A stretch of 64,000 nt of DNA, from the NCBI GenBank assembly GCA_009886115.1, contig VFJJ01000051.1, positions 1 through 64,000 on the forward strand, read 5' to 3'. The notes beneath the pieces are model-generated. The model worked only from the letters and a program-made list of their open reading frames with translations, made no database searches and was not told where the DNA came from. Positions within the stretch are counted from its first letter, which is position 1. Each line of letters starts with the position of its first letter. This DNA is from Actinomycetota bacterium (GTDB lineage Bacteria > Actinomycetota > Acidimicrobiia > IMCC26256 > VFJJ01). Below are positions 14,197-45,789 of the stretch, piece after piece. The position numbers were made by a program, and so were the translations under genes.

Positions 14197-15393
14197 TCAG
14201 CCCAGCTCGCTGCCCACGATGGCCACGAAGCTCACGCAGGCACCGGGGCGTCCACCCAGGTTGTGGGTCAGGGCCAGGTTCTTGCCGGCGGCCACCGACG
14301 GGATCTGGCGGGCCCCGGCTTCGCCGCGGAGTTGCATCCAGCACTCGAAGAGCATCCGCAGGCCCGATGCCCCGATGGGATGGCCGAACGACTTGAGGCC
14401 ACCGTCAGGGTTGACGGGCAGCTCACCGTCGAGGTCGAACACCCCTGCCAGCACGTCCTTCCAGCCCAGACCCCGCTCCGAGAAACCCAGGTCCTCCATG
14501 AGCACGAGCTCGGTGGGCGTGAAGCAGTCGTGCACCTCGGCCATCGCCAGTTGCGCGCGCGGGTTCGTGACCCCGGCCTGGCGGTAGGCGTCCTCGGCCG
14601 AGCGCACGACCTCGAGGAACGTCGTGTAGTCGTAGTCGGGGTCGATCGGACCCGACGCCGGACCGGCCACGAACGAGAGCGCCTTGACGTACAACGGGTT
14701 CGGGCAGTACCGGTGGGCGTCCTCGGCCCGCACGATGATGGCCGCCGCGGAACCGTCGGAGACGCCCGAGCAGTCGAACACACCGAGTTGGCCAGCCACC
14801 AAGGGTGCCGCGGCGATGGTCTCGCACGACACCTCCTTGCGGAACTGCGCCCGGGCGTTGAGCGCCCCGTTCTTGTGGTTCTTCCATGCGATTCGGGTGA
14901 TGACGTCCTTGAGCTCCTGGGCATCGAGCCCGTAGCGATTCGCGTAGGCCGGTGCCAGGTACGAGAACGCGGCGGGGGCTGCGATGCCGATGGCGCTGCC
15001 GTCGTTGGTGGGGTTGGGCGTGACCAGACCCGAGTAGCCGGAGTCCTTCAGCTTCTCGACGCCGATGGCCATGGCCGTGTCGTAGGCGCCCGAGGCGATG
15101 GCGTAGCAGGCGTTCCGGAACGCCTCCGAGCCCGTCGCGCAGTAGTTCTCAATGCGCGTCACGGGCTTGTAGTCGAGCTGGAGGGGTCGCGACAGCGTGA
15201 GGCCGCTCACACCCGAGCCCATGGTGCCGACCCAGAATGCGTCGACGTCGTCGATGCCCAGCCCGGCCGAGGCCAGCGCGTCGGCCGATGACGAGAGCAG
15301 CAGGTCGTCGACCGACTGGTCCCAGTGCTCGCCGAAGGGCGTGCACCCCATCCCGATGATCGCCACCCGGTCGCGAATCCCGTTCGACGCCAT
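14197..15393 (-). CDS. thiolase family protein (SCP2/archaeal acetoacetyl-CoA type)
   Basis: A 398-residue thiolase-fold enzyme acting on CoA thioesters. The nucleophile is C85 in NYCATGSE; HDCFT and the GHPIGASG loop near the C-terminus supply the other catalytic groups. It belongs to the short SCP2/archaeal branch, which lacks the long loop domain of FadA/AtoB. Members pair with DUF35 proteins, as in archaeal thiolase/HMG-CoA synthase complexes and in steroid side-chain aldolases. The ATG at 15393 has GGGGAG upstream; in-frame sequence further upstream crosses a palindrome and is not coding. It is the last gene of the liv/CoA-enzyme run, after the HMG-CoA-synthase-like/DUF35 fusion. The direction of reaction and the substrate are unknown. 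Confidence 0.88.
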   Translation of the reverse strand: MASNGIRDRVAIIGMGCTPFGEHWDQSVDDLLLSSSADALASAGLGIDDVDAFWVGTMGSGVSGLTLSRPLQLDYKPVTRIENYCATGSEAFRNACYAIASGAYDTAMAIGVEKLKDSGYSGLVTPNPTNDGSAIGIAAPAAFSYLAPAYANRYGLDAQELKDVITRIAWKNHKNGALNARAQFRKEVSCETIAAAPLVAGQLGVFDCSGVSDGSAAAIIVRAEDAHRYCPNPLYVKALSFVAGPASGPIDPDYDYTTFLEVVRSAEDAYRQAGVTNPRAQLAMAEVHDCFTPTELVLMEDLGFSERGLGWKDVLAGVFDLDGELPVNPDGGLKSFGHPIGASGLRMLFECWMQLRGEAGARQIPSVAAGKNLALTHNLGGRPGACVSFVAIVGSELG

Positions 15394-15414
15394 CGTTTCG
15401 CTCCCCACATCTCG

Positions 15415-15461
15415 AAATTTGTGCAGAAATCGTCGCCTGGCGACGATTTCTGCACAAATTT
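15415..15461. repeat. 47-base perfect palindrome (23-base arms)
   Basis: Arms 15415-15437 and 15439-15461 are exact reverse complements around a single T. The outer part is AT-rich (AAATTTGTGCAGAAAT), unlike the surrounding DNA; the inner part is CGTCGCC/GGCGACG. It lies between the fusion gene stop (15474) and the thiolase start (15393). No T-tract follows, so it is not a textbook terminator. It could be an mRNA processing hairpin, an operator or a REP-like element. Confidence 0.9.
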
Positions 15462-15473
15462 GGGCTGGTGCTG

Positions 15474-16901
15474 TCAGCCCCGGATGGGGCGGGCTTTCCA
15501 GAAGTAGTTGTGCACCGTACCGAGCGGCGAGGTGTAGAGCCGCCGGAAGGTCATTTCGACGCGCTGGCCGATCGCCACCTCGGCGGCCACGCAGTCGGTC
15601 AGCTCCACGTTGAACCGGCCTCCGCCGTCGAAGTCGATGATCGCCGCCACGAGAGGAGGCGACGGCGAGTAGGCCAGACGGTCGATCGTGTACGTGACGA
15701 TCGTGGCTCTCCGGTCGGCCATGGGGATTGCCTCGAAGCGGTCGACCGTCCGGCACTTGGGGCAGACCCGCTGCGGTGGCAACGTGATCGCCGAGCACGC
15801 CAGGCACCGGTTGCCGACGAACGCGTACTTCCACGATTCGTTGCGCAGCCCGGGCGGGGCCATGGGCCGCTCGGGATCGGGCCGGCGAGGCGGGTCGCGA
15901 TCGAGGAAACCTCGCCAGGTGAGGAAGTCGGTGTACGGGAGCCCGCCGCGGCCCGAAGAGGCCAGCTCAGCGACCGTGGCCGTCGGCCGGTAGGCAACCA
16001 GGGCTTCGGTGGTGCGCCACACGAGGGCGTCGGCTCCGTCGGCTAGAACCACCTGGAGGATGGTCTGGGCCGGCGCGGCCCGATCGAGCGCCGAGGCGAG
16101 CAACAGGTTGGGCGCCGCCGCTCCCGTGTTGCCGATGGTGGAAACGAAGTCGTCGACGAGGGCTTCCTTGCGGGCGCCGATCCGGGCCCGCACGACGCCG
16201 ACGGCACGGGCGTGCAGGCCGGCCACGACGAGATGGTCGACCTCGTCGATCGTGATGCCCGCCGCCTTCAAGGCATCGGTGACCGCCGCCTCCGCGAGCG
16301 GCACGTACGCATGCTCGCCGAAGCGGTCCTCCCAGGTCCTCGATGCCGGCTCACCCGGGGTGCGCCACCGGTCGAGGAACTCGGTCGTAGCACTGGCTCG
16401 TCCGAGCAGCTCACAGATCACCGGCGCCTCCGGGGTGCCCTCGCCCAGGAGCACCGCGACCGCACCATCACCGCCGTCGCGCTCGTCGGCTGAGGACGGC
16501 AGACCGGTCCGAACGTCGGAGGTGACGACGAGCGTCGCCCCGGGACCGCCCTGTCGTACCCCGGCCAGCGTCGCGGCCACGCCCGAGCGCACCGACCCGG
16601 CCATGTCGGCGGCCAGCACCGAATGGTCGAGCCGGAGTGCGGCGTGCACGCCGACGGCGTTGGTCTTGTCGGCATACGCCGGAACGGTCGTCGAGAGCCA
16701 CAACTGGTCGGGACGAACGCCCGGGGTCGCCCCCAGCGCGGCGCGCCCGGCCTCGACGGCCATCGAGGTGCTGTCCTCGTCGTACGACGCGACGCTGCGC
16801 GTGCCCCGTCCGCCTCCGCTTCCCAGCGCCGCACCGATGGCTGACCGATCGAGCCGCCAGTACGGCACGTACACGCCGTACCCCAGCACTCCCCTGCTCA
16901 T
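15474..16901 (-). CDS. HMG-CoA synthase-like domain fused to DUF35 OB-fold
   Basis: A 475-residue fusion. Residues 1-~310 follow the 3-hydroxy-3-methylglutaryl-CoA synthase/KAS III thiolase fold (opening VLGYGVYVPYWRL, late GNTGAAAPN). Residues ~350-475 are a DUF35 unit: a rubredoxin-like zinc ribbon C366-x2-C369/C380-x2-C383 and an OB fold. In archaea separate thiolase, DUF35 and HMG-CoA synthase subunits form one channelling complex; here two are fused and the thiolase is next door. The expected nucleophile position appears to be V104 (AGSVRSG), and the upstream Glu motif reads STTVPAY, so condensation activity is doubtful. The ATG at 16901 follows AGGAGG at 16905-16910. The fold is secure, the reaction is not. 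Confidence 0.85.
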   Translation of the reverse strand: MSRGVLGYGVYVPYWRLDRSAIGAALGSGGGRGTRSVASYDEDSTSMAVEAGRAALGATPGVRPDQLWLSTTVPAYADKTNAVGVHAALRLDHSVLAADMAGSVRSGVAATLAGVRQGGPGATLVVTSDVRTGLPSSADERDGGDGAVAVLLGEGTPEAPVICELLGRASATTEFLDRWRTPGEPASRTWEDRFGEHAYVPLAEAAVTDALKAAGITIDEVDHLVVAGLHARAVGVVRARIGARKEALVDDFVSTIGNTGAAAPNLLLASALDRAAPAQTILQVVLADGADALVWRTTEALVAYRPTATVAELASSGRGGLPYTDFLTWRGFLDRDPPRRPDPERPMAPPGLRNESWKYAFVGNRCLACSAITLPPQRVCPKCRTVDRFEAIPMADRRATIVTYTIDRLAYSPSPPLVAAIIDFDGGGRFNVELTDCVAAEVAIGQRVEMTFRRLYTSPLGTVHNYFWKARPIRG

Positions 16902-16992: not shown

Positions 16993-18420
16993 TCAACCCG
17001 CGAACACGTACTCCTTGGCGAAGGGTGACTCGACGACCTCCTGCAGGGCCAGGAGGTTCCGGTCGGTCTTGGCCGGGTCGAACCTGAAGATCGCGCTCTC
17101 GATCGGCGGCACCCGCTCGTCGGGCGGGCCGTAGGTGTAGTTCCCGGCCAGGCCCTCGAAGTCGACCTCACCGAGCTGCTGGACGGCGTTCACGAGCCCT
17201 TCGTGGCTCAGGTCACCCAGGGCGACGGCCTTCTCGAGCGCGGCGTGGGCCGCCAGGGTTGCCGTGTAGCCGGTGAGCAGGAACGTGCTCGGCGCTGCTC
17301 CGTCCCCGTACTTCTCGACCCGGTCGAGGAAGTTCTTCATGCCCGGGATCTCCGGATCGCCGAACTCGCCGCCGTCTCCCACGAGATAGAAGTTGGCGAA
17401 CGCGGCGCCGTTGTCGCCGCCGGCGAGCAACGACAGGAAGCTCGGCAGCGTGCCGATGAAGACGGGCTCGAAACCGAGTGACCGGGCTCCGGTCATGAGG
17501 CCGGTCTGCTCCCTCGGCGTCGACACCGAGAACACCACTTCGCAGCCTGCGTCGGCGAGCTCGGTCACCTGGGCGGTGAAGTCGGTGTCGCCTGAGTTGT
17601 ACGTGGTGTCGGCTGCGAACTCGAAGCCGTACTTCTCGGCGGCGAACTCCAGCCCGGTCAGGCCCGACTCGCCGTACGAATCGTTCTGCGCGAACGTGCA
17701 CGCGGTCTGGCCCGCCCCCTCGAGGTTGGTCTGCCAGAACTCGACGCCGTTGATCATCTCGATCTCGTACGGAGCCGAGTACGGGAGGAAGTTCGGGTTG
17801 CGCACCCACTCCCCGGCCAACGAGCCGGGGATGGCGAGGATGTTGTCCTCGACGAGGAACTCGGCCATGGCCTTGGTCACCGGCGTTCCCAGGATGTTGG
17901 TGAACATCACCACGTCACCCTTGATCTGCTGGTACGCCTGCACCGCGACCGGCGCCTCGTTCTTGGAGTCGGCGACCTTGATCTCGACCTTGTACTTGCC
18001 CGCGATGCCGCCGAGCTCCTCGTTCACGAAGTCCCAGTACGTCTGGGCACCCACGAGCAGGTCGGTGCCCACGAAGGCCAGGGGCCCGGTCTGGTCGAGC
18101 ACCGCACCCACGGTGATCGTCTCGCCATCGAAACCGTCGACCTCTTCAGGATCGCCGACCGGGGCCGGCACCGTGGTCGTGGCGTCAGGTGGGGGTTCGG
18201 TGCTCTCGGTCGAATCGCCGCTCGTCGTGGTGTCACCCGGGCCCGCCGTGGTCGCGGCCGTCGTGTCGCCGCTCGGGGCTGTGGTTTCACCGGTGGCCGG
18301 AGTCGTCGCGTCGTCATCGTCGTCGCCGCACGCGGCAGCGACGAGACCGAGCGCCAGGAGTCCGGCGACGAGACGCACGAGTCGCCGTGTCCGAGCGGGG
18401 TGGTGCACGTGCTGGTTCAT
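16993..18420 (-). CDS. branched-chain amino acid-type ABC transporter substrate-binding lipoprotein
   Basis: Lipid-anchored periplasmic-binding-type receptor (type I fold, LivJ/LivK family) of the adjacent importer. The signal peptide ends in a lipobox with the acylated C31 (VAAAC), followed by an Asp run and a Thr/Ser/Gly/Asp linker to ~90, then the two-lobe binding domain from ITVGAVLDQTGPLAFVG. The 475 residues include a longer linker than usual. I chose the ATG at 18420 because GGGAGAG precedes it and upstream in-frame codons lack a signal peptide. Ligands of this family range from amino acids to urea and aromatic or acyl compounds; the downstream CoA enzymes suggest a carbon source catabolised as a CoA thioester. 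Confidence 0.92.
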   Translation of the reverse strand: MNQHVHHPARTRRLVRLVAGLLALGLVAAACGDDDDDATTPATGETTAPSGDTTAATTAGPGDTTTSGDSTESTEPPPDATTTVPAPVGDPEEVDGFDGETITVGAVLDQTGPLAFVGTDLLVGAQTYWDFVNEELGGIAGKYKVEIKVADSKNEAPVAVQAYQQIKGDVVMFTNILGTPVTKAMAEFLVEDNILAIPGSLAGEWVRNPNFLPYSAPYEIEMINGVEFWQTNLEGAGQTACTFAQNDSYGESGLTGLEFAAEKYGFEFAADTTYNSGDTDFTAQVTELADAGCEVVFSVSTPREQTGLMTGARSLGFEPVFIGTLPSFLSLLAGGDNGAAFANFYLVGDGGEFGDPEIPGMKNFLDRVEKYGDGAAPSTFLLTGYTATLAAHAALEKAVALGDLSHEGLVNAVQQLGEVDFEGLAGNYTYGPPDERVPPIESAIFRFDPAKTDRNLLALQEVVESPFAKEYVFAG

Positions 18421-18460
18421 GATTCGCTCTCCCATGGTGTGAGCCGGGCGACGCATCGCC

Positions 18461-19537
18461 TCAGGGCGTCGACCGGGCGGTACGGAAACGGGCCTTGGCC
18501 CGCAGCCACAGGGCAGCGAGGCCCCGGGGCTCGAACAACAGGAACACGATCAGGAGAGCTCCGAAGAGCATCTCGTTGAACGCCGCGATCGACACGATGC
18601 CGCCCTCGCCCTTGACCTCGTAGAGGAACGGCAGCTTGTCGCTGTACTTCTCGACGATCTCGGGCAACGGACCGAGGAACAACGCTCCGAGGACCGCTCC
18701 CGACACCATACCCACGCCGCCGACGATGATGATGGCGACGTACTGGATCGACAGGAAGATGTTCCAGCTCGTCGGGCCCACGAACTGCTGCTGCACACCC
18801 AGCATGGCCCCGGCCATGGCCGCCATCGAGCTCGAGATCACGAAGGCGCCGATCTTGTACCGCGGCAACGAGATGCCGACCACCTCGGCGGCGACGTCGC
18901 GGTCGCGAACCGCCTGCAGGGCCCGACCCGGACGCGAGCGCACGATGTTGGCCGACACCAGGACGAACAGGCCGGCGAGGATCCACACGAGGTAGTAGAG
19001 ACCCTGCAGCTCGCTGAAGTCCTTGCCCGGTATCGAGAAACTCCGGAAATCGGTGAACCCCAACGAGAGCTCGGCCTGGCTCGTGGACGTGCCGTTGGTG
19101 CCGCCGGTGACCCGATCCCAGTTCTCGAAGATGTGGATGCCGATGAACACCAGGCCCAACGTGACCACGACGAGGTAGTTGCCCTTGAGCCGTAACGCGA
19201 AGGGGCCGACGATGCCACCGATGACGCCGCCGATCACTCCCGCGGCCAGGAGCCACAGCGGCAGGGGCCAGCCCCGGGCGGCGCCGAGGTACGCGGCGGT
19301 GTACGCGCCGCACCCGAGGAAGAACGCGTGCCCGAGCGACACCTGGCCGGTGAAACCGGTGAGCACGTTGAGCCCCACCGCTCCCATGGCGAAGATGCCG
19401 GCCGACACGAGCACGGTCATCCAGAAGTCGCCACTCACGACGAAGGGCACGAGAACACCGACCGCGACGACGAGCCCGATCGAGACGCGCGAGAAGCGTG
19501 TGGGAAGCAGTCGGAGTGCCGTGTCGTCGGTGGCCAT
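18461..19537 (-). CDS. livM: branched-chain-type ABC transporter permease LivM
   Basis: A 358-residue inner-membrane permease with about nine or ten hydrophobic segments; the LTGFTGQVSLGHAFF signature near residue 60 is typical of LivM. It forms the channel with LivH. The ATG at 19537 shares one base with the livH stop (TGATG), so the two are translated in tandem. In-frame codons upstream of this ATG lie within livH in another frame and are not credible. The specific substrate cannot be read from the permease. Confidence 0.92.
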   Translation of the reverse strand: MATDDTALRLLPTRFSRVSIGLVVAVGVLVPFVVSGDFWMTVLVSAGIFAMGAVGLNVLTGFTGQVSLGHAFFLGCGAYTAAYLGAARGWPLPLWLLAAGVIGGVIGGIVGPFALRLKGNYLVVVTLGLVFIGIHIFENWDRVTGGTNGTSTSQAELSLGFTDFRSFSIPGKDFSELQGLYYLVWILAGLFVLVSANIVRSRPGRALQAVRDRDVAAEVVGISLPRYKIGAFVISSSMAAMAGAMLGVQQQFVGPTSWNIFLSIQYVAIIIVGGVGMVSGAVLGALFLGPLPEIVEKYSDKLPFLYEVKGEGGIVSIAAFNEMLFGALLIVFLLFEPRGLAALWLRAKARFRTARSTP

Positions 19538-20430
19538 CACACTCGCTCCACGGCGCGGCTGCCGAACAGGCCCGTCGGCTTGAGCACCAGGATCGCGATC
19601 ATCACGACGAAGGGCATCACCGAGTGGAACCCCTGGCCCAGCCACTCGGCGTTGGGCTCGATGTAGCCGGTGGTCATGACCTCGGTGACACCGATGACCA
19701 CGCCACCGACGATTGCGCCGAGCGGCGAGTCGAGGCCGCCCAGGATCATCGCCGGGAAGGCCCGCAACGCCGAGAAGCTCAGCGTGGAGTTGACCGATGC
19801 CGAGTCGGCGCCGAGCATGACGCCGGCCACCACGGCCACGACGCCAGCGATGGCCCACGAGATGGCGAACACGCGAGCGACGCTGATCCCCTGAGCCAGG
19901 GCGGCCTCCTGGTCGATCGCCGCGGCCCGCATGGCAACGCCCCATGCACTGAAGCGGAAGAACAGGAAGAACCCGAGCACCACGATCGCAGCGAAGAGCA
20001 CGGTGAAGAACCGCACCTGGGTGATGACGACCCCACCGAGCTCCCACTGGTCGGTGCCCCAGGGATCGTCGAGGAGCACCTCGGTGCTCCAGATCGACTG
20101 CTGCACCTGTTGGATCAGGATCAACAGGCCGAGGGTGACCATGATCACGGTGAACGCCGGCTGGCCCACGAGCTTGCGCAGCACGAGTCGTTCGAGGATC
20201 ACCGCCAGGATTGCCATGGTCGCCATGGCCATCAGCATCGCCACGATGAACGGCAGGTCCCAGGTGACCGAGTAGTTGTACGTGAGGTACGCGCCGAGCA
20301 GCACGAAGCCGCCGTGAGCGAAGTTGATCGTGCCCGTCGACTTGAACACCACCACGAAACCCAGCGCCACCAAGGCGTAGATCGACCCGAGCGCCGTGCC
20401 GGCGACGAGCAGGTTCAGGAACTTGTCCAT
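19537..20430 (-). CDS. livH: branched-chain-type ABC transporter permease LivH
   Basis: A 297-residue permease, partner of LivM. It starts MDKFLNLLVAGTALGSIYAL and has the family stretch GTINFAHGGFVLLGAYL near residue 34, plus about eight membrane segments. It begins four bases after the livG stop and ends overlapping livM. Its length is normal for LivH. Together with livG, livF and the lipoprotein it makes a complete importer. Confidence 0.93.
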   Translation of the reverse strand: MDKFLNLLVAGTALGSIYALVALGFVVVFKSTGTINFAHGGFVLLGAYLTYNYSVTWDLPFIVAMLMAMATMAILAVILERLVLRKLVGQPAFTVIMVTLGLLILIQQVQQSIWSTEVLLDDPWGTDQWELGGVVITQVRFFTVLFAAIVVLGFFLFFRFSAWGVAMRAAAIDQEAALAQGISVARVFAISWAIAGVVAVVAGVMLGADSASVNSTLSFSALRAFPAMILGGLDSPLGAIVGGVVIGVTEVMTTGYIEPNAEWLGQGFHSVMPFVVMIAILVLKPTGLFGSRAVERV

Positions 20431-20434
20431 GGCA

Positions 20435-21196
20435 TCAGCTCGCTTCGCCGAGATAGGCGCGGATCACGTTGGGGTCGTTGGCGATCTGCTCCGGAGTGCC
20501 GACGGCGATCACCTGGCCGAACTCCAGGACCAGGAGCCGATCGGCCAGGTCCATCACGAAATGCATGTCGTGCTCGACGAGGACCATCGCCACCCCCAGC
20601 TCGTCACGGATGTCGAGGATGTAGCGGGCCATGCCTTCGGTCTCCTCGAGGTTCATCCCGGCCACCGGCTCGTCGAGCAACAGCACCTTGGGGTCCATGG
20701 CCAGGGCCCGTCCGAGCTCGATGCGCTTCTGGATCCCGTAGGGCAGGGTGCCGATGGGCTGACGGCGGTAGGGGGTGAGCTCGAGGAGCTCGACGATCTC
20801 CTCGCAGCGACGGCGGTGCACGATCTCCTCACGCTTGGCTCGCCCCACCCAGAGTGCCCCGGCGATGAACCCCGTCTTCATGAGGTGGTGCCGGCCGAGC
20901 ATCAGGTTCGAGATCACGTCGAGATTCGAGAACAGGGCAAGATTCTGGAACGTTCGGGCAATCCCGAGCGAAGCGATCTTCGACGGCGGAAGGCCCGTGA
21001 GCTCAAGACCCTCGAGCTTGATCGAGCCTCTCGGCTCGTACACCCCGTTGAGGCAGTTGAAGATCGAGGTCTTGCCCGCGCCGTTGGGACCGATGACCGC
21101 GAACAGCTCACCCGCCTCGACATCGAAGGTGACGTCGGAGATCGCTCGCACGCCGCCGAAGCTGAGGGAGATCTCGCGGACCTCGAGCAGGCTCAT
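20435..21196 (-). CDS. livG: branched-chain-type ABC transporter ATP-binding protein LivG
   Basis: A 253-residue ATPase subunit. Walker A is GPNGAGKT (about 37-44), the signature is the LivG-specific LPYGIQKR in place of LSGGQ, Walker B is VLLLDEP, followed by the switch His (VEHDM). It overlaps the livF stop by four bases (ATGA), so expression is coupled. All catalytic residues are present. Confidence 0.95.
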   Translation of the reverse strand: MSLLEVREISLSFGGVRAISDVTFDVEAGELFAVIGPNGAGKTSIFNCLNGVYEPRGSIKLEGLELTGLPPSKIASLGIARTFQNLALFSNLDVISNLMLGRHHLMKTGFIAGALWVGRAKREEIVHRRRCEEIVELLELTPYRRQPIGTLPYGIQKRIELGRALAMDPKVLLLDEPVAGMNLEETEGMARYILDIRDELGVAMVLVEHDMHFVMDLADRLLVLEFGQVIAVGTPEQIANDPNVIRAYLGEAS

Positions 21197-22056
21197 GCGT
21201 CGCCCACCTGTGCAGCACCAGCACGTGCAGCCGCCGCCGCGTTCGTCGCCTTGTAGTGCTCGCGGGCGTCGCGGTACGACCGGCGTCCGGCGGTTCCCAT
21301 GCCCAGATAGAGGTCCTTGATCTTCTCGTCGTTGCGCAACTCGTCGGCCGAGCCCTCGCGCGCCACCCGGCCGTTCTCGAGCACCACGGCCCGGTGCGCG
21401 ATCGACAGCGCCATCGAGGCGTTCTGCTCGACCAGGAGCACGCTCGTGCCTTCCGCGTTGATGTCGACGATGATCTGGCGGATCTGCTCGACGACCATCG
21501 GGGCCAGGCCCAGCGAGGGCTCATCGAGCACGAGGAGCCGAGGTTGGGCCATGAGCGCCCTGCCGATGGCCACCATCTGCTGCTCGCCCCCCGAGAAGAA
21601 CCCGGCCCGCTGGCCTCGACGCTCGGCGATCTTCGGGAACCAGCCCATGACCTTGGCATGCGTGGCTGCCGTCGCCGCCTTGTCCCGAACGGTGAAGCCG
21701 CCGGTGCGGAGGTTCTCGTCGACGGTGAGCTCACCGAAGATCCGCCGACCTTCCATGACCTGCGCTATGCCCGCCCTGACGATGGCGGTCGACGACTGCC
21801 CGTCGATCCGACGCCCGTCGAGCACGATCTGGCCTCGCGTGATCTTCGCCCGGTGCACGGGCAGCAGCCCGGTGACGGCCCGCAAGAGGGTGGTCTTGCC
21901 CGCCCCGTTGGCGCCGAGGATCGCCACGATGGAGCCCCGCGCGACCTCGAGCGACACGCCGCTCAGGCCCACGATCACATCCTGGTAACGCACCTCGAGA
22001 TCGTCGACCCGGAGGATCGGCTCGGTCGTCGCGTCGTCGTCAGCGTGTTCCACCAT
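21193..22056 (-). CDS. livF: branched-chain-type ABC transporter ATP-binding protein LivF
   Basis: The second ATPase, 287 residues. Walker A is GANGAGKT, the signature is FSGGEQQM, Walker B is LVLDEP and the switch is VEQN. A C-terminal Ala-rich extension of ~35 residues exceeds the usual ~235-residue LivF. It is the first gene of the seven-gene liv/CoA-enzyme run. Directly before its ATG the minus strand has eight G residues, which act as a poor Shine-Dalgarno and are a slippage-prone homopolymer. Confidence 0.94.
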   Translation of the reverse strand: MVEHADDDATTEPILRVDDLEVRYQDVIVGLSGVSLEVARGSIVAILGANGAGKTTLLRAVTGLLPVHRAKITRGQIVLDGRRIDGQSSTAIVRAGIAQVMEGRRIFGELTVDENLRTGGFTVRDKAATAATHAKVMGWFPKIAERRGQRAGFFSGGEQQMVAIGRALMAQPRLLVLDEPSLGLAPMVVEQIRQIIVDINAEGTSVLLVEQNASMALSIAHRAVVLENGRVAREGSADELRNDEKIKDLYLGMGTAGRRSYRDAREHYKATNAAAAARAGAAQVGDA

Positions 22057-42080: not shown

Positions 42081-43316
42081 TCAGCTGTCGTAGCGGCGTT
42101 TGATCTCGACGATGCGGTCTTGGGCGTGGTTGGCGTCGTCGCCTTGGCTGGCGAGGAGCTGGTCGCGGTCGCGGCGGGCCTCGCGCTCGGCGATGGTGGT
42201 GTCGGCCCGGGCGATGGCGGCGTCGGTGCCGTGCTCGTGGATGAACTCGGCCCACTCCACGAGGGCCTCGACCATCTCCGACTCGGCGACCACGGCGACG
42301 TTGCGGCCCTTGACGAACAGGTGCCCCCGCTTGTTGCCCGCGGCGATCCCCAGATCGGCCTCTCGGGCCTCGCCCGGCCCGTTGACGACGCAGCCCATCA
42401 CCGCGACCTGCAGCGGCAGCTCGCGCTCACCGAAGGCGGCCATGGCCCGCTGCGCCACGTCGATCACGTCGACCTCAGCCCGTCCGCACGAGGGGCAGGC
42501 GATGAGGTCGACGCTCTTGCGTTCCCGTAGCCCCATGGCCTCGAGCAGCTGGCGGCCGGCCCTCACCTCCTCGACCGGGTCGGCGGTGAGCGAGTAGCGG
42601 ATGGTGTCGCCGATGCCCTCGGCGAGGAGCGTCGCGATGCCGGCCGTCGACTTGATCAGCCCGGCGGGCGGTGGACCGGCCTCGGTGACACCGAGGTGCA
42701 GCGGATGATCGGTGACGTCGGCCAGCATCCGGTAGGCCTCGATCATGAGCATCACGTTCGACGCCTTGACCGAGATCTTCACATCGTCGAAGCCGACCTC
42801 GGCGAAGTAGGCCAGTTCCTGCTGGGCCGACTCGACCATGGCCTCGGGCGTGACCCGTCCGCCGTGCTTGGCGTAGAGCGCAGGGTCGAGCGAACCGCCG
42901 TTCACCCCGATGCGGATGGGCACGTTGCGGTCGCGGCATTCCTGGGCCACGAGCTTGATGTGCTCGGGGCGACGGATGTTGCCGGGGTTGAGGCGCAGGC
43001 AGGCCACGCCAGCGTCGAGCGCAGCCAGGGCCATCTTGTACTGGTGGTGGATGTCGGCCACGATCGGGACGGGCGAGCGGGGCACGATCTGCGCCAGGCC
43101 CTCGGCCGCTTCGATCTCGTTGCAGGTGCAGCGCACGATGTCGGCGCCGGCAGCGGCCAACGCGTAGATCTGCTGGAGGGTCCCCTCGACGTCGGCCGTC
43201 TTGGTGATCGTCATCGACTGCACGGTGATCGGCGAGCCACCGCCGACCGGTACCGTCCCGACGTGCAGGAGGCGGGTGATCCGGCGCGGGTGGGTGGTCG
43301 AGCTGTTGGCGTCCAT
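42081..43316 (-). CDS. ispG: (E)-4-hydroxy-3-methylbut-2-enyl-diphosphate synthase IspG (GcpE)
   Basis: Iron-sulphur enzyme of the MEP isoprenoid pathway, 411 residues. The TIM-barrel start (GGGSPITVQSMTITKTADV) and the C-terminal [4Fe-4S] ligands (CPSCGRAEVD, then CVVNGPGEA) are intact. A charged ~50-residue tail extends beyond the usual end. It lies 42 bases after the site-2 protease gene, in the conserved dxr-rip-ispG order. It shows that the organism uses the MEP route. Confidence 0.96.
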   Translation of the reverse strand: MDANSSTTHPRRITRLLHVGTVPVGGGSPITVQSMTITKTADVEGTLQQIYALAAAGADIVRCTCNEIEAAEGLAQIVPRSPVPIVADIHHQYKMALAALDAGVACLRLNPGNIRRPEHIKLVAQECRDRNVPIRIGVNGGSLDPALYAKHGGRVTPEAMVESAQQELAYFAEVGFDDVKISVKASNVMLMIEAYRMLADVTDHPLHLGVTEAGPPPAGLIKSTAGIATLLAEGIGDTIRYSLTADPVEEVRAGRQLLEAMGLRERKSVDLIACPSCGRAEVDVIDVAQRAMAAFGERELPLQVAVMGCVVNGPGEAREADLGIAAGNKRGHLFVKGRNVAVVAESEMVEALVEWAEFIHEHGTDAAIARADTTIAEREARRDRDQLLASQGDDANHAQDRIVEIKRRYDS

Positions 43317-44664: not shown

Positions 44665-45789
44665 TCATGCGCCACGGCGGCGATCGATGATCTGGGTGGC
44701 TCGGGCGCGTCCGCGAGCATCGGCGTCGAGCACAGCACCGAGCGTACCGGCCGGACCGGCGGTCTCCGACGCGAGCACCTCGCCGATCGTCTCGTCGATC
44801 GCCAGCCAGGAGACCTCGCCGGCCAGGAACGCCTCGACGGCGACCTCGTTGGCCGCGTTGAGCAGCGCCGGGGCCAGCCCGCCGACCCGGGCGGCCTCAT
44901 AGGCATGGGCCAGGCAGCGGAACGTCTCGAGATCGGCGGTCTCGAACGTGAGTTGCGACAGCCGGGTCCAGTCGATGACCCCGACGGCCTGCGGGACCCG
45001 ACCCGGGTCGGCCATCGCATAGCCGATCGGCCCGCGCATGTCGGGCATCGAGAGCTGGGCGATGGTGGCGCCGTCGCAGAACTCGACCATCCCATGGATG
45101 ATCGACTGGGGGTGGATCACCACCTCGATCTGGTCGAGCGAAACCTCGAAGAGCTCCTTGGCTTCGATGACCTCCAGGCCCTTGTTCATGAGCGTCGACG
45201 AGTCGATGGTGATCTTGGGGCCCATCGACCACGTCGGGTGCTTGAGCGCCTCCTCGACCCGCACGTCGGCCAGCGCGGCCCGCGTGCGGCCGCGGAACGG
45301 CCCGCCGCTGCCGGTGATGAGCAGACGCCGGACCTCGGCCGGCGATCCGGCCCGCATCGCTTGGTACAAGGCCGAATGCTCGGAGTCGACGGGAACGATG
45401 ACGCCGCCGCCGTCCATGCGGGCCTTGGCCACGACCGGCCCGGCGGCGATGAGGCTCTCCTTGTTGGCCAAGCCGAGCCGCTTGCCCGACTCCAGCGCCG
45501 CCAGTGTGGCCGGCAACCCGGCGAAGCCCACGACGGCGTTGATGACGATGTCGACGTCGTCGAGGCTGGCCAGACCGGCGAGAGCCGACGGATCATCGCC
45601 GCAGATCCGAGCCTTCCCCGCGGCGACGCCGAACTCGAGCGCCTGGGCGGCGAGCAGGTCGACGTTTCGCCCCGAGGCCAGCGCCACCACGCGGTAGCGC
45701 TCGGGGTTGGCGCGCACGACGTCGAGGCTCTGCGTGCCGACCGAGCCGGTCGAGCCGAGCACCGCCACCCCGAGTCGATCAGTCCTCAT
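44665..45789 (-). CDS. dxr: 1-deoxy-D-xylulose-5-phosphate reductoisomerase
   Basis: Second enzyme of the MEP pathway, NADPH and metal dependent, 374 residues. The nucleotide motif GSTGSVGTQSLDVV is at residues 12-25, the metal/substrate motif DSEHSALYQ near 154, and the C-terminal helical domain is present. TTGGAG upstream of the ATG at 45789 is a weak ribosome site. The gene follows cdsA after a 214-base spacer that holds palindromes. Confidence 0.96.
   Translation of the reverse strand: MRTDRLGVAVLGSTGSVGTQSLDVVRANPERYRVVALASGRNVDLLAAQALEFGVAAGKARICGDDPSALAGLASLDDVDIVINAVVGFAGLPATLAALESGKRLGLANKESLIAAGPVVAKARMDGGGVIVPVDSEHSALYQAMRAGSPAEVRRLLITGSGGPFRGRTRAALADVRVEEALKHPTWSMGPKITIDSSTLMNKGLEVIEAKELFEVSLDQIEVVIHPQSIIHGMVEFCDGATIAQLSMPDMRGPIGYAMADPGRVPQAVGVIDWTRLSQLTFETADLETFRCLAHAYEAARVGGLAPALLNAANEVAVEAFLAGEVSWLAIDETIGEVLASETAGPAGTLGAVLDADARGRARATQIIDRRRGA

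What the first reader, a model, noticed from the sequence alone, without database searches (positions are those of the whole stretch)
14197..16901. Thiolase next to an HMG-CoA-synthase-like/DUF35 fusion whose synthase active site looks lost
In archaea, thiolase, DUF35 and HMG-CoA synthase are separate subunits of one channelling complex that starts the mevalonate pathway. Here two of the three are fused, the third is adjacent, and dxr plus ispG in the same window show the MEP route, so mevalonate synthesis is not the likely role. The fusion has Val (AGSVRSG, residue 104) where the Cys nucleophile is expected and STTVPAY where a catalytic Glu motif is expected. It may be a scaffold or CoA-binding partner of a thiolase or aldolase acting on an imported carbon source.
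Basis: partly seen in the sequence, partly recalled or inferred. Interest (0 to 1): 0.72.

Follow-up and report, generated by a model that had tools for sequence, protein, structure and literature searches.

The report
Thiolase with dead HMG-CoA-synthase partner
Two neighbouring genes encode a working thiolase and a two-domain partner descended from an enzyme of sterol-precursor synthesis that has lost its catalytic residues; the pair is found together in many bacteria and probably forms one enzyme that cuts large fatty-acid-like or aromatic CoA esters, a variant of a known kind of enzyme complex.

Summary
Window 15474-16901(-) encodes a 475-aa HMG-CoA-synthase-like/DUF35 fusion, and 14197-15393(-) an intact SCP2/archaeal-type thiolase. 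Against the solved archaeal complex (6ESQ), the synthase Cys is Val104, the Glu is Val73 and the His is lost. This is a family trait, not decay: none of 53 relatives has Cys at this position, while the thiolase Cys85, H288/C290 (HDCF) and H338 are invariant in 52 of 52. Among 296 genomes of the class, 89 have the fusion and 92 the thiolase; all 89 have both, and 96 of 103 thiolase copies lie directly downstream of a fusion (median gap 30 bp). The AlphaFold model (pTM 0.91) matches 6ESQ HMG-CoA synthase best, then MucABC and PhlABC. PhlA, published as lacking the same Cys and Glu, is a direct precedent. No HMG-CoA reductase was found in the genome. Best reading: a two-subunit thiolase whose partner is a scaffold and pocket wall, acting on bulky acyl-CoAs. 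In this window it follows a LIV-type importer whose binding protein is closest to a fatty-acid binder. New variant of a known kind; substrate unknown; complex formation inferred, not shown.

The parts
15474..16901 (-). HMG-CoA-synthase-like (res. 1-345) / DUF35 (zinc ribbon 359-384 plus OB fold 396-453) fusion, 475 aa, catalytic Cys/Glu/His lost (V104, V73)
14197..15393 (-). SCP2/archaeal-type thiolase, 398 aa, NCBIfam PRK06157 equivalog (596 bits, cut-off 403); C85, HDCF 288-291 and GHP 337-339 intact
15415..15461 (.). perfect 23-bp inverted repeat with 1-nt loop in the 80-bp gap between the two genes; one of at least 28 copies in this genome, not specific to the operon
16993..18456 (-). substrate-binding protein of a LIV-type ABC importer (Peripla_BP_6); closest solved structure 4N03, fatty acid ABC transporter substrate-binding protein
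18461..19537 (-). LIV-type permease (BPD_transp_2)
19537..20430 (-). LIV-type permease (BPD_transp_2)
20435..21196 (-). LivG-like ATPase (assigned by reading the sequence and by gene order)
21193..22056 (-). LivF-like ATPase (assigned by reading the sequence and by gene order)

Best explanation
The two genes encode one heteromeric thiolase. The thiolase subunit does all the chemistry: Cys85 takes the acyl group, the HDCF Cys290 and GHP His338 handle protons, and CoA releases the shortened acyl-CoA (retro-Claisen cleavage of a 3-ketoacyl-CoA). The partner is a fusion of what are separate subunits in archaea (HMG-CoA synthase and DUF35) and in PhlABC (PhlA and PhlB). Its DUF35 part clamps the thiolase dimer, and its catalytically dead synthase part is a scaffold that closes and shapes the CoA/substrate pocket. 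The likely substrates are bulky, non-standard acyl-CoAs at the end of beta-oxidation-like routes; in this genome probably a hydrophobic acid taken up by the adjacent ABC importer. Shown: gene content, loss of the synthase residues, retention of thiolase residues, obligate linkage, fold. Inferred: the physical complex, the scaffold role, the direction of the reaction, the substrate.
For: Synthase Cys/Glu/His lost in the window protein and Cys lost across the family; thiolase residues invariant in 52/52. Co-occurrence in 89 of 89 fusion genomes, 96 of 103 thiolase copies with the fusion directly upstream, overlapping by a few bases in some. AF2 pLDDT 89, pTM 0.91; Foldseek best 6ESQ HMGS (TMt 0.88), then MucABC and PhlABC chains. 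Published precedent: PhlA lacks Cys and Glu, only PhlC does chemistry, PhlB (DUF35) bridges (PMC6392133). DUF35 divergence tracks thiolase divergence more closely (partial r 0.60) than the synthase domain does (0.37). Neighbours elsewhere: acyl-CoA dehydrogenase, paired MaoC/FAS1-type hydratases, SDR, CoA ligase, CaiB, Rieske dioxygenase. Own genome lacks HMG-CoA reductase. Window binding protein closest to a fatty-acid binder.
Against: No complex was modelled or measured. Neighbourhoods vary: some pairs sit among housekeeping genes with no catabolic partners, so the substrate may differ between copies. 14 of 53 fusions have lost all four zinc cysteines. Conserved charged residues in the synthase domain (R35, DED 41-43, E140, E174, W179) leave room for a ligand-binding or other role.
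Confidence: 0.72

Rival explanations
1. A PhlABC/MucABC-like acyltransferase: the complex moves an acyl group between carbon acceptors (or removes one from an aromatic ring) with no free CoA-dependent thiolysis.
For: Same three-domain make-up, same dead synthase, next-best structural matches; Rhodococcus, M. avium and Streptomyces copies sit beside Rieske dioxygenase and CoA ligase genes, resembling the ibuprofen route in which the ipfDE-encoded thiolase releases propionyl-CoA.
Against: The thiolase is closer to archaeal acetoacetyl-CoA thiolase (187 bits) than to PhlC (88 bits); many copies lie with acyl-CoA dehydrogenase, hydratase and SDR genes typical of beta-oxidation.
Confidence: 0.14
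2. The thiolase-like subunit is a retro-aldolase of the Ltp2/Sal type and DUF35 joins it to a hydratase.
For: Ltp2 and Sal are also DUF35-bound thiolase-fold enzymes; the own genome holds further DUF35/SCP2-thiolase gene pairs.
Against: Sal lacks the nucleophilic Cys and Sal/Ltp2 have YDCY/YDHF in place of HDCF; here C85 and HDCF are invariant in 52/52, and the fused partner is a synthase fold, not a MaoC hydratase.
Confidence: 0.05
3. [quoted passage not shown]
For: Closest fold and sequence relative is the archaeal complex.
Against: Cys, Glu and His all lost; no HMG-CoA reductase in the genome; MEP genes dxr and ispG present.
Confidence: 0.02
4. The fusion is a decaying pseudogene-like relic next to a self-sufficient thiolase.
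For: Lost active site.
Against: Open frame in the aligned relatives, dozens of conserved charged or aromatic positions in the synthase domain, near-absolute linkage, two paralogous pairs kept in this genome.
Confidence: 0.02

Closest known systems
Archaeal acetoacetyl-CoA thiolase/DUF35/HMG-CoA synthase complex (6ESQ, Methanothermococcus thermolithotrophicus)
   Same: Same three domains; both window proteins are closest to it by sequence; synthase fold TMt 0.88
   Different: Here synthase and DUF35 are one chain, the synthase active site is lost, and the genome makes isoprenoids by the MEP route
PhlABC (5M3K) multicomponent acyltransferase of Pseudomonas
   Same: Dead HMGS-like subunit (PhlA lacks Cys and Glu) plus DUF35 (PhlB) plus active thiolase-fold subunit (PhlC)
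   Different: Three separate chains, antibiotic biosynthesis, Gly in place of Cys; here two chains and mostly catabolic neighbours
MucABC (9VBO/9VBT) of Streptococcus macacae
   Same: Multicomponent acyltransferase with a related synthase-like subunit
   Different: About 19% identity; separate subunits
Benzoylsuccinyl-CoA thiolase BbsAB (7PXP)
   Same: DUF35 plus SCP2-like thiolase acting on a bulky acyl-CoA
   Different: No synthase-like domain described
ChsH2-Ltp2 and Shy-Sal steroid hydratase/aldolases (6OK1, 9MYR)
   Same: DUF35 joins a thiolase-fold enzyme to a partner domain
   Different: Partner is a MaoC hydratase and the thiolase-fold enzyme is an aldolase without the thiolase Cys pair
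NCBIfam PRK06157 'acetyl-CoA acetyltransferase'
   Same: The window thiolase is a member (596 bits, cut-off 403)
   Different: The name gives no tested substrate and does not mention the linked fusion partner

Membership tests
HMG-CoA synthase (archaeal, PRK04262/TIGR00748) | Cys nucleophile and catalytic Glu, His | tested here: not met
   V104, V73, His replaced; never Cys in 53 relatives
HMG-CoA synthase (archaeal, PRK04262/TIGR00748) | score above curated cut-off | tested here: not met
   128 vs 244 bits and 75 vs 353 bits
HMG-CoA synthase (archaeal, PRK04262/TIGR00748) | HMG-CoA synthase fold | tested here: met
   6ESQ_I TMt 0.88
DUF35 (zf-ChsH2 + OB_ChsH2_C) | zinc ribbon Cys4 and OB fold | tested here: met
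   Pfam above cut-off for both; C366 C369 C380 C383; lost together in 14 of 53 relatives
SCP2/archaeal-type thiolase | nucleophilic Cys, HDCF and GHP motifs | tested here: met
   C85, HDCF 288-291, GHP 337-339; invariant in 52/52
PhlABC-type multicomponent acyltransferase | HMGS-like subunit without Cys/Glu + DUF35 + active thiolase subunit, gene-linked | tested here: met
PhlABC-type multicomponent acyltransferase | A2C2/B4 dodecamer held together by DUF35 | not testable with these tools
PhlABC-type multicomponent acyltransferase | CoA-independent C-acyl transfer | not testable with these tools
   needs enzyme assay
Ltp2/Sal aldolase | nucleophilic Cys absent, Tyr-based motif in place of HDCF | tested here: not met
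   C85 present, HDCF intact

The most novel reading that the evidence does not exclude
The dead synthase domain has become a dedicated acyl-CoA sensor or substrate-delivery domain: its conserved residues (R35, DED 41-43, Y76, K79, R105, E140, E174, W179) hold the bulky acyl or CoA part and gate or channel it to the thiolase across DUF35, giving a previously undescribed class of two-chain thiolases that cleave specialised (steroid-, terpenoid- or aryl-type) acyl-CoAs in many bacteria.
Probability: 0.2. Interest if true: 0.6.

Novelty: new variant of a known kind. Interest (0 to 1): 0.42.

Why it matters
It shows that the arrangement seen in PhlABC (dead HMG-CoA-synthase subunit, DUF35 bridge, live thiolase) is not an oddity of antibiotic synthesis but a common bacterial module, present in about 30% of the sampled genomes of this class and also found in Rokubacteria, Chloroflexi and Proteobacteria. 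Because DUF35 and synthase are one chain here, only two genes need be co-expressed to ask what a catalytically silent synthase subunit contributes. It also warns that annotations such as 'hydroxymethylglutaryl-CoA synthase' for these proteins are misleading.

Tried and rejected
A mevalonate role was rejected (no HMG-CoA reductase, active site lost). Ltp2/Sal aldolase was disfavoured by the intact Cys and HDCF. An intact triad elsewhere in the fusion was looked for and not found: the one synthase-domain Cys (C163) is not among the conserved residues. The LIV transporter as a conserved partner was tested and not supported. The Streptomyces cathayae importer next to the same pair first looked like a LIV system but is the peptide type by Pfam. 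The proximity of dxr/ispG is housekeeping synteny, not pathway linkage. The literature found does not describe this fusion, but only open-access papers could be searched; the 6ESQ paper itself was not held. An automatic gene caller of my own gave shifted starts in some loci; only BLAST, HMM or annotated hits are relied on.

Full report
What is there. On the minus strand lie a 475-aa HMG-CoA-synthase-like/DUF35 fusion (15474-16901) and a 398-aa thiolase (14197-15393), separated by 80 bp. They follow five genes of a LIV-type ABC importer (16993-22056) and are inserted in a housekeeping stretch between dapB, an M16 peptidase and a pnp-like gene on one side and RNase-J-like and ftsK-like genes on the other; ispG (42084-43316) and dxr (44668-45789) are confirmed by curated models. 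The genome appears to belong to the Acidimicrobiia: one relative of the same order in the search has a contig of the same length as that of a Baikal Acidimicrobiia MAG fetched under its public name (inference).

The synthase active site. Against archaeal HMG-CoA synthase 6ESQ_I the nucleophile Cys aligns with V104, the Glu with V73 and the His with a Gly position. In the AlphaFold model residue 104 starts the helix 104-116 after strand 96-99, where the nucleophile of this fold is expected. In 53 relatives from actinobacteria, Rokubacteria and gammaproteobacteria, plus one Chloroflexi MAG, the position is V, A, L, T, P or I and never Cys. More distant fused relatives (about 30-36% identity) in other actinobacteria and proteobacteria lack it as well, and one actinobacterial family has a three-gene, unfused version that also lacks it. 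So loss of catalysis is old and maintained. The rest of the domain is under strong constraint (R16, R35, D41, E42, D43, Y76, K79, R105, D129, E140, D145, E174, W179 and others), which argues against decay.

The thiolase. It belongs to NCBIfam PRK06157 and is closest in the PDB to the thiolase of the 6ESQ complex. C85, H288, D289, C290, F291 and G337-H338-P339 are invariant in 52 of 52 relatives. According to the Sal paper (PMC12329534), SCP2 thiolases use the nucleophilic Cys plus the HDCF Cys, and the Sal aldolase has Gly in place of the former; so the sequence predicts thiolytic cleavage and not aldol cleavage.

Obligate pairing. In the genome-contig scan the thiolase orthologue (57-77% identity) lies next to the fusion in every locus with enough DNA, except that two Rokubacteria loci have about 1.1-1.4 kb between them. 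Among 296 genomes of the class, 89 have the fusion and 92 the thiolase; all 89 have both. Of 103 thiolase copies 96 have a fusion directly upstream on the same strand, median gap 30 bp, with overlaps of a few bases; five of the seven exceptions start within 150 bp of a contig end. Pairwise distances of the two proteins correlate (r 0.84), and in a non-redundant set thiolase divergence tracks the DUF35 domain (partial r 0.60) more than the synthase domain (0.37, about the largest of 1000 permutations), as expected if DUF35 touches the thiolase; this is suggestive only.

Structure. The fusion model has mean pLDDT 89 and pTM 0.91. Foldseek ranks the HMG-CoA synthase chains of 6ESQ/6ET9 first (TMt 0.85-0.88), then MucABC and PhlABC subunits. 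The PhlABC paper (PMC6392133) states that PhlA lacks the Cys and Glu of HMG-CoA synthase, that only PhlC residues act in acyl transfer, that PhlB (DUF35) mediates binding, and that all three are needed for a functional enzyme. This is the mechanism proposed here, with A and B fused.

Physiology. Neighbours in other genomes are acyl-CoA dehydrogenases, MaoC/FAS1-type hydratase pairs, enoyl-CoA hydratases, SDRs, CaiB CoA-transferases and AMP-forming ligases. Rhodococcus qingshengii, R. opacus PD630, M. avium and Streptomyces clusters add a Rieske dioxygenase and a CoA ligase (the Streptomyces genes were read by eye), as in the ibuprofen route where the ipfDE thiolase releases propionyl-CoA. One relative comes from Patulibacter medicamentivorans; its cluster holds a ligase-like gene, an F420-dependent oxidoreductase and a second thiolase. 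Other copies lie among housekeeping genes. The importer in the window is not a conserved partner, but its binding protein is clearly closest, by sequence and by model, to 4N03, deposited as a fatty acid ABC transporter substrate-binding protein. Together with the absence of HMG-CoA reductase this points to breakdown of an imported hydrophobic acid in this organism; the substrate is not known.

Verdict. Not shown here: physical complex, activity, substrate.

Noticed in passing
window 15415-15461; G000 genome-wide: A perfect 47-bp palindrome between the two genes is a genome-wide repeat: 28 places match its 37-bp core with up to 2 mismatches, and none in 57 other genomes of the order. Paired changes on both arms occur (A/T variant). 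Function unknown.
   Followed up: partly
L011, L071, L073, L079: In four loci the fusion-thiolase pair lies about 1-6 kb from a dxs gene; probably inherited gene order, pathway link not tested.
   Followed up: partly
fusion family, residues 366-383 of the window protein: 14 of 53 fusions have lost all four zinc-ribbon cysteines together, so the zinc site is dispensable in part of the family.
   Followed up: no
L127-L130: One actinobacterial family has an unfused operon of HMGS-like (no Cys), thiolase and DUF35-like genes, a possible intermediate between archaeal and fused forms.
   Followed up: partly
L002 / G000:C130:21035-23709: The same genome holds a second fusion-thiolase pair (53% and 66% identity) preceded by an acyl-CoA dehydrogenase-like gene.
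   Followed up: partly
L003-L008 (G000): Several further DUF35 genes next to SCP2-type thiolase genes in this genome, suggesting a large capacity for bulky acyl-CoA breakdown.
   Followed up: no
L126 2891-9266: In Streptomyces cathayae the pair directly follows a peptide-type ABC importer (SBP_bac_5, BPD_transp_1), a different transporter type from the window's.
   Followed up: yes
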